From contig NC_088654.1 of assembly GCF_964019385.1 (NCBI RefSeq), forward strand, positions 20,010,998 to 20,074,997: 64,000 nucleotides of DNA. The letters are read 5' to 3'. The position numbers and the translations under genes were made by a program. The DNA comes from Sycon ciliatum (Eukaryota; Porifera; Calcarea; Leucosolenida; Sycettidae). The notes beneath the pieces are model-generated. The model saw only the letters and a program-made list of their open reading frames with translations, did no database searches and was not told the origin of the DNA. This document shows, in pieces, positions 25,451 to 27,692 of this stretch. The first letter of the stretch is position 1, and each line of letters starts with the position of its first letter.

Positions 25451-25976
25451 TTAGTAACCACGGCGGCGGCTGGAGCTACGGCGGAGGGCAAGCCAGGTTT
25501 TATCTTCATCTTGGTTGAGCCGGTCACTCAGAGCGGCTAGCTCGGCGTCAGACAAATGACCTCCCTCCTCGTCTTGAATCGTGGTCTTCACATTGTCGAT
25601 AGCATCGCTTTGCGCGACGTAAAGAGTGATGGTCTAGCCAGGAAGAGTGTTGACGAAAATCTGCATCCCACCACGGAGGCGAAGTACCAAGTGAAGAGTG
25701 GGCTCCTGCTTCCGACTGCGTGCCGGCGAAAATCAAACGCTGCTGGTCTTGGGGAATACCCTCCTTGTCTTGGGCAGTAGCCTGCCTGTTGTCGTCCTCA
25801 TCAGCTTCGCCATCACCACCGGTAGTATACATGTAGGTAGCGGGTCGCTTGGAATCGCCATCGGAGTCTCCAGTGGATGCCATGTGGAGGGAAGGGTGAT
25901 CCGCGCTAGCACCCTGACTGTGCAGAAAGCTAATAAGCATGGCCAGGCCCAGGAAAGCAAGAAACATGATTCTCAT
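25451..25976 (-). pseudogene. Signal peptide plus broken polyubiquitin, copy 1
   Basis: The ATG at 25976 opens a frame with a classic signal peptide (MRIMFLAFLGLAMLISFL, cleavage likely after GASA). An acidic stretch rich in Asp, Glu and Gly follows, then ubiquitin from about residue 31: QDKEGIPQDQQRLIFAG with Thr at the usual Lys48. Near 25705 about 11 ubiquitin residues are missing and the frame shifts. In the second frame come LHLVLRLRGGMQIFVNTLPG, a TAG stop (25634-25636) at ubiquitin Lys11, then TITLYVAQSDAIDNVKTTIQ, and a basic tail ending RRRGY and TAA at 25451. The first frame runs on out of register to 25548. No intact ubiquitin unit remains, so this is best called a pseudogene. Its capture by the LTR element is inferred. 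Confidence 0.75.
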
Positions 25977-26054
25977 CTTGATTCGTCGCACGGAGCTGCA
26001 GCGGGTTGAGCCATGGGGGTCTGGGGTCGAATCACGTCGTTATATTTTAAACTA

Positions 26055-26068
26055 CACCGCTGCCACCA
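26055..26068 (-). promoter_or_regulatory. Primer-binding site, tRNA-Leu type
   Basis: On the minus strand TGGTGGCAGCGGTG begins one base after the LTR end. It is complementary to the 3' end of animal tRNA-Leu (CACCGCTGCCACCA) over 14 bases. Confidence 0.8.
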
Positions 26069-26069
26069 A

Positions 26070-26381
26070 TGTAATGGTTAGCCGAGTGGTAGGCGCGGTG
26101 AAATCAACAAGAATTCGTTTTATTCTACTTCTTTCAGGTACACACCTGAAATATAATTATTAGTGAAAGAAGAAGCGGCAAAATAACTGACTTTCTCTCC
26201 GGTGCACACCTGGAGGTTGAATAGCTCGTTATTATCAAAATCTCATCTAAAAAGAAATGCGCAGCAGCTTTTATGAAGCAGACGCCGTACGCTTACATAC
26301 GGAGATACACTAACTATACATCAGCCAAAGCTCCGCATTAGTTCCGTACTACTTCCGTATTGGTCGGGCAGGGATACTACA
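26070..26381 (-). repeat. LTR copy 2 (312 bp)
   Basis: Middle LTR shared by both internal regions. Confidence 0.9.
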
Positions 26382-26397
26382 CCCTCCCTTCCTACAG
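26382..26397 (-). promoter_or_regulatory. Polypurine tract, copy 2
   Basis: Same sequence and position relative to the LTR as at 24666. Confidence 0.8.
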
Positions 26398-27166
26398 ATT
26401 ATCACGCCCTCGTGATTTTCAAAAACAATTAGTGAAGAGTTGACTTTTTACGTGAGTAAAGACTTTTTATGCGTGGTGAACTGCGCCGACACCCACGGTC
26501 AACTGGGTACTCACAGCTCGGAGTGAGGGTAACAAGGATGCAGTTTACAGGGTTATGATTGGTTGAGAGACTCACCTACTCTCCCCTGACTCACTTGTGA
26601 GGTCTGCATTCGCCACTAAGGTGTGCAAGGCATAGGCATAGTGGTGGCCTGCGGAAGCGAAGGCTAGTTTGTGTGTTTCTGAACATTCAAGCGATGCCAA
26701 CGCGAATCCCGCGAATTATTATTATTATTATTATTAAGAGTTACGAACACAGCGTCAACCGGAAGATGGCAAATTATATCGGAAATGATAACGTTTAGAG
26801 TGGACAGAAGAAATGAACTGAAAACAAATCATAAAGTAGTAGCACACCAGGTTCACACGATCTCTCGGGGTCAAAAGGGGAAAGAACTGTCCTCCAAATA
26901 GGACCTGAAAAACTACAGCACTCTTGCTGCACAACGCTGGCACAACCCGCCAGGAACATCGCAGTTCAAAAACCGAACTGAATACACTATAACTATAAGG
27001 GGCGTTGTCACACACATTGTCCCACGTTAGCTGGGTAAACCGTGGCTCACCATGATCAGACGCCTACCAAACTAAACTGGATTCACACACTCGCATAAAG
27101 GAGGACTGAAAAGAACAGGGAGACTGAAGGAAGAGAGGAAAGAAAATGCCATACCTAGAATCAGCG

Positions 27167-27692
27167 TTAGTAACCACGGCGGCGGCTGGAGCTACGGCGG
27201 AGGGCAAGCCAGGTTTTATCTTCATCTTGGTTGAGCCGGTCACTCAGAGCGGCTAGCTCGGCGTCAGACAAATGACCTCCCTCCTCGTCTTGAATCGTGG
27301 TCTTCACATTGTCGATAGCATCGCTTTGCGCGACGTAAAGAGTGATGGTCTAGCCAGGAAGAGTGTTGACGAAAATCTGCATCCCACCACGGAGGCGAAG
27401 TACCAAGTGAAGAGTGGGCTCCTGCTTCCGACTGCGTGCCGGCGAAAATCAAACGCTGCTGGTCTTGGGGAATACCCTCCTTGTCTTGGGCAGTAGCCTG
27501 CCTGTTGTCGTCCTCATCAGCTTCGCCATCACCACCGGTAGTATACATGTAGGTAGCGGGTCGCTTGGAATCGCCATCGGAGTCTCCAGTGGATGCCATG
27601 TGGAGGGAAGGGTGATCCGCGCTAGCACCCTGACTGTGCAGAAAGCTAATAAGCATGGCCAGGCCCAGGAAAGCAAGAAACATGATTCTCAT
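27167..27692 (-). pseudogene. Signal peptide plus broken polyubiquitin, copy 2
   Basis: Encodes the same peptides as copy 1, with the same deletion and frameshift and the same TAG (27350-27352). The lesions therefore predate the tandem duplication, or are the normal state of the element. Confidence 0.75.

What the first reader, a model, noticed from the sequence alone, without database searches (positions are those of the whole stretch)
25451..27692. An LTR element whose cargo is a signal peptide joined to ubiquitin
Seen: each internal region has no gag or pol but has a reading frame starting with a strong signal peptide, an acidic spacer, then unmistakable ubiquitin sequence (QDKEGIPQDQQRLIFAG; LHLVLRLRGGMQIFV) crossing a ubiquitin-ubiquitin junction, and a novel basic tail ending RRRGY. 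Known: LTR elements sometimes capture host transcripts, and polyubiquitin is cytosolic with no signal peptide. Inference: the element captured either a fused host transcript or an unusual secreted ubiquitin gene. The deletion, frameshift and Lys11 stop, shared by both copies, suggest decay, but other family copies could be intact.
Basis: partly seen in the sequence, partly recalled or inferred. Interest (0 to 1): 0.85.

Follow-up and report, generated by a model that had tools for sequence, protein, structure and literature searches.

The report
Sponge LTR element carrying captured ubiquitin
In a calcareous sponge, a large family of small jumping elements carries a piece of the sponge's own ubiquitin gene fused behind a secretion signal, a striking case of gene capture whose product, if made, has no known role.

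Summary
In the window (host Sycon ciliatum, a calcareous sponge) three LTRs and two internal regions lie on the minus strand, 24354-28085, with a tRNA-Leu primer site, a polypurine tract and a 4-bp target duplication; no gag or pol was found. It is one insertion: the middle LTR is a mosaic of the outer two. The family is large and recently active. The usual undeleted copy encodes 124 aa: signal peptide, acidic spacer, ubiquitin 31-76, MQIFVNTLPG, then a stop at the Lys11 position, TAG in 46 of 48 readable copies: a founder feature, not decay. The window copy belongs to a deletion sub-family that still spread. The ubiquitin comes from the host's C1 polyubiquitin lineage. A ~1-kb cassette with the ORF sits in two LTR families whose LTRs are nearly unrelated, so it was probably exchanged. 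Protein-level constraint is weak; the truncated ubiquitin is not confidently folded. Best reading: a non-autonomous LTR element with a captured, mostly passenger, chimeric host cassette. Its autonomous partner and the source of the signal-peptide part were not found.

The parts
24350..24353 (.). target-site duplication CAAA, left side
   Evidence: CAAA on both sides of the three-LTR array
24354..24665 (-). LTR (3' LTR in element sense), 312 bp, type A
24666..24676 (-). polypurine tract GGAAGGGAGGG (element strand); second copy 26382-26392
   Evidence: same tract before the 3' LTR in type A elements
24726..25019 (+). SINE-like insert with (TTA)n tail, flanked by AAGAGTT; second copy 26442-26735; not part of the family structure
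   Evidence: absent from L003-L008; flanks
25035..26015 (-). cassette shared with LTR family B (short uORF, ORF, post-stop frame, 3' region); second copy 26751-27731
   Evidence: boundaries by eye on the alignment
25451..25633 (-). post-stop frame: rest of ubiquitin unit 2 (residues 12-35), then the tail GHLSDAELAALSDRLNQDEDKTWLALRRSSSRRRGY
   Evidence: looks neutral across copies
25548..25976 (-). main ORF of this copy (signal peptide, spacer, ub 31-54, then the frame shifted by the sub-family's deletion)
25634..25636 (-). TAG at the Lys11 position of ubiquitin unit 2; usual end of the ORF in undeleted copies
   Evidence: TAG in 46 of 48 copies with a readable junction
25667..25705 (-). ubiquitin residues 64-76 (EPTLHLVLRLRGG), out of frame with the main ORF in this copy
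   Evidence: read by eye
25701..25772 (-). ubiquitin residues 31-54 in the main ORF
25773..25904 (-). acidic spacer, 44 residues, net charge -7
25905..25976 (-). predicted signal peptide MRIMFLAFLGLAMLISFLHSQGAS
   Evidence: hydropathy; no dedicated predictor run
26055..26068 (-). primer-binding site, 14 nt, complementary to the 3' end of host tRNA-Leu (11 nt of the gene plus CCA); second copy 27771-27784
26070..26381 (-). middle LTR, 312 bp, mosaic of the two outer LTRs
26382..27785 (-). second internal region, identical to 24666-26069
27264..27692 (-). second copy of the main ORF
27786..28085 (-). LTR (5' LTR in element sense), 300 bp, with a 12-bp deletion
28086..28089 (.). target-site duplication CAAA, right side

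Best explanation
It is a non-autonomous LTR retrotransposon, made of LTR, tRNA-Leu primer site, a captured ~1-kb cassette, polypurine tract and LTR, moved in trans by an autonomous element not identified here (inferred). The cassette is a chimera: the 5' part of a transcript for a small secreted acidic protein (inferred), joined to one 76-codon period of the host's C1 polyubiquitin gene and back. The ubiquitin insert starts and ends at the same place in the unit (QDKEG / QDEEG, residues 31-35), so I infer microhomology-guided template switching during reverse transcription (not shown). The founder already had TAG at Lys11, so it encoded a secreted ~100-residue acidic polypeptide ending in ubiquitin 31-76 plus MQIFVNTLPG. 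The cassette was later exchanged between two LTR families, and the family spread recently. The protein is at most weakly constrained and probably rides as a passenger. In the window, one deletion-type copy was duplicated in tandem by unequal crossing-over.
For: LTR element: 40 of 56 loci examined gave an LTR-like pair; 30 of these have clear TGTA..TACA ends, 81.7-100% identical, six identical, and 26 of the 30 have a perfect 4-bp target duplication. Primer site complementary to a host tRNA-Leu gene. Host origin of the ubiquitin: over residues 31-76, 13.0-22.8 mean mismatches of 138 nt to the five C1 units, 30.8-40.5 to the C4 units; ub 12-35 agrees (11.9-13.9 against 18.7-21.9 of 72); ub 1-10 does not discriminate. 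Silent difference to the best unit 0.16-0.19 in the six copies examined, against a mean of 0.59 between 11 distinct host units. Founder stop: 46 of 48 TAG, none AAG. Copies: 150 of 1009 candidates scored by protein, all with E of 2.7e-74 or better. Cassette tree of 51 copies: A and B groups about 0.017 apart, while their LTRs align only over ~60-70 bp at 74-83%. Passenger: after transition correction the first part's N/S ratio is 0.74 of neutral, p=0.059; a deletion that breaks the ubiquitin frame is shared by 11 of 63 classifiable copies. Tandem: mosaic middle LTR.
Against: No autonomous partner was seen (LTR search: 40 of 1507 candidates scored). The source of the leader and spacer was not found, so 'captured secreted gene' is inference. 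The two-switch model rests on one coincidence of breakpoints. Branch support for group A is modest (84/77), one A-labelled copy (L043) falls in B, and independent capture from one source, or LTR replacement, would look much the same as cassette exchange. Some signs of constraint exist: signal peptide N/S 0.55 of neutral, p=0.048, uncorrected for several tests, and dN/dS 0.24 (bootstrap 0.10-0.48, n=40); family A pairwise dN/dS 0.34, n=12; frameshifting indels 0.81 per 100 bp in the ORF against 8.31 in the 3' region, though 45 of those 51 rows were chosen by protein similarity.
Confidence: 0.66

Rival explanations
1. Functional cargo: the element makes a secreted, truncated, lysine-poor ubiquitin-like peptide that helps it, for example in leaving or entering cells, or by acting on the host.
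For: 10 of 20 copies fetched by their 3' part keep the ORF. Signal peptide least tolerant of replacement (0.55, p=0.048; dN/dS 0.24). Family A pairwise dN/dS 0.34. Cassette retained in two LTR families. Lysines changed at 6 of 8 sites against 9 of 73 other sites, p=0.0003, post hoc and partly at or after the stop.
Against: Whole-ORF constraint not significant after transition correction (p=0.059). The deletion sub-family spreads without the ubiquitin frame. AlphaFold2 mean pLDDT 52.8. A non-autonomous element gains little from a trans-acting protein (general reasoning).
Confidence: 0.15
2. The fusion is a host gene (a secreted ubiquitin-like precursor) that the element transduced whole.
For: The cassette begins near CAG-A and looks like a transcript piece (5' leader, ORF, ~420 bp 3' region, by eye).
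Against: None of the 92 hits to leader and spacer bears a Sycon name, although Sycon proteins are in that database; lengths of about 78-249 aa only. The tail piece gave 3 candidates of 102-324 aa, none scoring. A ubiquitin insert of one exact period suggests a chimera.
Confidence: 0.12
3. The TAG is read through, giving a ~185-aa product ending RRRGY.
For: All 10 copies with an intact first part in the 3'-fetched sample keep the frame after TAG open to RRRGY or RRHGY; two copies have a sense codon there; frameshifting indels are rarer after the stop (2.78 per 100 bp) than in the 3' region (8.31).
Against: The post-TAG frame looks neutral (N/S 1.18 of neutral, p=0.57; dN/dS 1.01, n=14), and in 19 of 48 readable copies (my count) it does not reach RRRGY.
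Confidence: 0.05
4. Assembly artefact: the chimera or the tandem is not in the genome.
For: The two units are almost identical.
Against: The fusion recurs at dozens of dispersed loci in two LTR families; the tandem has a mosaic middle LTR and one target duplication.
Confidence: 0.02

Closest known systems
Non-autonomous LTR elements (TRIM, LARD, TR-GAG; names and definitions recalled)
   Same: LTRs, primer site, polypurine tract, target duplication, no pol; thought to move in trans
   Different: Internal region of about 1.1 kb (1404 bp with the SINE) with a non-gag ORF; too long for TRIM, too short for LARD, no gag found
LTR elements with captured extra ORFs (bdelloid rotifers, PMC5408684, abstract seen)
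   Same: Same cargo ORF types in different retroelement lineages; modular exchange
   Different: There the extra ORFs come in addition to gag and pol; here the cargo is the only ORF seen and is host ubiquitin
Cytopathogenic BVDV with cellular ubiquitin inserts (PMC8310069, passages seen)
   Same: A replicating RNA took in host ubiquitin sequence by recombination, including a truncated ubiquitin
   Different: There ubiquitin serves as a processing signal for a viral protein; here no protein follows and only residues 31-76 are present
BfUbb, secreted ubiquitin of Bacteroides fragilis (PMC5705921, abstract seen)
   Same: Ubiquitin behind a signal peptide
   Different: 76-residue mature ubiquitin, bacterial, shown to act against other strains
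Complex LTR insertions sharing an LTR (PMC1950507, abstract seen)
   Same: Two elements sharing an LTR
   Different: That paper argues for template switching; here the mosaic middle LTR points to unequal crossing-over

Membership tests
LTR retrotransposon (non-autonomous) | two LTRs with TG..CA ends | tested here: met
LTR retrotransposon (non-autonomous) | primer site complementary to a host tRNA next to the 5' LTR | tested here: met
   11 nt of a host tRNA-Leu gene plus CCA; one of two loci checked by ARAGORN is a tRNA gene
LTR retrotransposon (non-autonomous) | polypurine tract next to the 3' LTR | tested here: met
LTR retrotransposon (non-autonomous) | target-site duplication | tested here: met
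   4 bp in 26 of 30 pairs with clear ends, and in the window; 10 of 40 pairs had unclear ends and were left out
LTR retrotransposon (non-autonomous) | no own gag/pol; autonomous partner in the genome | tested here: inconclusive
   4 ORF pieces of the internal region scanned, no gag or pol; partner not found among 40 of 1507 LTR candidates scored
TRIM | very small internal region without coding capacity (recalled) | tested here: not met
   internal 1404 bp in the window (1110 bp without the SINE), with an ORF
TR-GAG | gag domain | tested here: not met
   Pfam scan of 4 ORF pieces: only hits below cut-off, to ubiquitin (E 0.004) and YwqJ-deaminase (E 0.05)
Ubiquitin | complete 76-residue fold ending in GG | tested here: not met
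   residues 31-76 only; PF00240 above cut-off but only positions 29-72; AlphaFold2 pLDDT 52.8, no fold comparison run
Secreted protein | signal peptide, cleavage and export | not testable with these tools
   hydropathy only

The most novel reading that the evidence does not exclude
A retrotransposon family has turned a piece of its host's polyubiquitin gene into a secreted, lysine-poor ubiquitin-derived peptide that helps it persist or spread in the sponge, and the cassette hops between LTR families as a module.
Probability: 0.12. Interest if true: 0.85.

Novelty: new variant of a known kind. Interest (0 to 1): 0.55.

Why it matters
Host-gene capture by LTR elements is known, but here the donor gene, the breakpoints, a founder stop, many copies and a later exchange of the cassette between two LTR families can be read in one genome. 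It is an unusually clear natural record of how retroelements pick up, exchange and spread host coding sequence. If the peptide is made and secreted, it would be an unusual use of ubiquitin outside the cytosol.

Tried and rejected
Phage records: no match, not relevant. Basic tail as diverged ubiquitin: not supported (255 of 2000 shuffles as good). Programmed read-through: not supported. The window's own Gypsy element (56919-61899) as autonomous partner: rejected, different LTR and primer site. Four further ubiquitin hits were read: the C4 one is a host ubiquitin-S27a-like exon, the other three are element copies. Host naming by COX1 did not complete. Papers: the listings of searches showed no report of a ubiquitin-bearing LTR element or of this family in Sycon; I saw titles and starts of abstracts, and the library holds open-licence papers only.

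Full report
Host. The best named relatives of the window's Gypsy protein are Sycon ciliatum proteins on contigs whose lengths equal those of G000 contigs (28965150 C13, 36034923 C7, 35797121 C8, 38951906 C5, 28966952 C12, 42331803 C4); one, 97974678, is 1000 bases longer than C1. The host is that calcareous sponge (lengths; taxonomy).

Structure. Three LTRs (24354-24665, 26070-26381, 27786-28085) flank two identical 1404-bp internal regions. CAAA lies on both sides. The middle LTR agrees with the 27786 LTR at columns 9 and 183 and with the 24354 LTR at every differing column from 236 on. This is the mark of unequal crossing-over between the LTRs of one insertion. The primer site is complementary to 11 nt of a host tRNA-Leu gene plus CCA. 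The polypurine tract is GGAAGGGAGGG. A 294-bp SINE-like insert lies in both internal regions and is absent from L003-L008.

The family. A DNA search with the ORF region scored 40 of 609 candidates and listed 41 matches, two of them the window's own. A protein search scored 150 of 1009; all 150 matched at E of 2.7e-74 or better, and by my count 104 of the 150 rows list no stop inside the match. Of 56 loci examined, 40 gave an LTR-like pair; 30 had clear termini, and 26 of these have a perfect 4-bp target duplication. Six pairs are identical, so I infer recent activity.

The protein. Among 48 copies with a readable junction the Lys11 codon is TAG in 46, TAT in one and TGG in one; none has the host's lysine codon. 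The usual undeleted ORF is 124 aa (33 of 40 such copies): MRIMFLAFLGLALLISLQHSQGAS, an acidic spacer, ubiquitin 31-76 with K48T and K63Q, and MQIFVNTLPG. In a sample of 20 copies picked by their 3' non-coding region (family A type; 20 of 38 places outside the window, taken in order of similarity, one already-held copy skipped), 10 have this ORF intact, 3 have the deletion-type ORF (137-142 aa), 1 has an early stop, 1 a frameshift, 1 lost the first start codon, and 4 show no leader in the fetched 651 bp. The window copy is of the deletion type, shared by 11 of 63 classifiable copies, and by 4 of 14 in the 3'-picked sample; 14 of 77 could not be classified. The other loci were chosen by the window's ORF or by an undeleted protein, so these are not family frequencies.

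Origin of the ubiquitin. The genome has at least two polyubiquitin genes (C1, L079; C4, L080 and L082), with one protein sequence in all 17 units read. Element ubiquitin 31-76 is nearer to every C1 unit (13.0-22.8 mean mismatches of 138 nt) than to any C4 unit (30.8-40.5); residues 12-35 agree, residues 1-10 do not discriminate. Silent difference to the best unit is 0.16-0.19 in six copies, against a mean of 0.59 between host units. I conclude that it was captured from the host's own C1 gene lineage. The insert runs from residue 31 of one unit to residue 35 of the next: one exact period with nearly the same short sequence at both ends, CAAGACAAGGAGGG and CAAGACGAGGAGGG. I infer two template switches at that sequence; this is not shown.

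Two LTR families. The shared cassette is ~1.0 kb. Outside it, family A (TGTAGTATCC..CCATTACA) and family B (TGTAGCGTAT..CCGCTACA) share only ~60-70 bp of LTR at 74-83% and ~41 bp at the polypurine end. A tree of 51 cassettes puts A (20) and B (31) in two shallow groups about 0.017 apart (branch supports 84/77 and 98/99); one row labelled A by a short motif (L043) falls in B, and L014 (B) sits alone. LTRs this different with cassettes this close suggest that the cassette was exchanged between families; independent capture from one source is not excluded. Direction was not determined.

Selection. Pairwise dN/dS: first part 0.61 (n=57), 0.51 in the 3'-picked set (n=10), 0.34 in family A (n=12), 0.82 in B (n=33); post-stop part 0.87 (n=46) and 1.01 in the 3'-picked set (n=14). 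Within the first part: signal peptide 0.24, spacer 0.91, ubiquitin 31-76 0.70 (n=40). Counted as events and corrected for transitions: first part 0.74 of neutral, p=0.059; signal peptide 0.55, p=0.048; spacer 0.93; ubiquitin part 0.75, p=0.23; post-stop 1.18, p=0.57; first part in the 3'-picked set p=0.052. Without that correction the first part departs from neutral with p=0.006, and first part against post-stop differs with p=0.095. Frameshifting indels per 100 bp: 0.81 first part, 2.78 post-stop, 8.31 3' region, but 45 of 51 rows were chosen by protein similarity, which hides shifts in the first part. Constraint is weak at best and not shown.

Fold. AlphaFold2 on the 121-residue form with 18 relatives gives mean pLDDT 52.8; no fold comparison was run.

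Host source of the leader. One search found 92 proteins among 133 candidates; none bears a Sycon name. The clear family relatives (P0001-P0048, and P0050, P0052, P0058 among the later rows) come from source 'ena' only; nearly all of the other later rows carry ubiquitin-type Pfam domains. The tail of an intact copy gave 3 candidates, none scoring. Both searches cover limited lengths (about 78-249 and 102-324 aa).

Verdict.

Noticed in passing
26070-26110 (and the other LTRs): The U5 end of the LTR is complementary to the D-arm of the same tRNA-Leu whose 3' end fits the primer site (16 paired bases with one 3-nt gap; 0 of 2000 shuffles as good): a possible two-part primer site.
   Followed up: partly
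56919-61899: A near-intact Gypsy-type element: 347-bp LTRs 99.7% identical and one 1432-aa gag-pol frame, unrelated to this family.
   Followed up: partly
10198-10241: Type I hammerhead ribozyme match above Rfam's gathering score.
   Followed up: no
41767-41839 and 42048-42120: Two tRNA-like genes with anticodon CTA, which would read the UAG stop; perhaps SINE-derived.
   Followed up: no
25973-26014 and the same place in other copies: A 13-residue upstream ORF (MAQPAAAPCDESR) whose stop overlaps the main start (ATGA), seen with small changes in the family A and B copies aligned (by eye).
   Followed up: no
ubiquitin part of the family ORF: Lysines changed at 6 of 8 sites against 9 of 73 other sites (p=0.0003, post hoc).
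   Followed up: partly
47873-48549 and 51082-51864: Long simple-repeat tracts that read as open frames.
   Followed up: no
G000 C5:31972471-32320686: Four family copies in ~350 kb, each with one TAG and near-equal scores: possible segmental duplication.
   Followed up: no
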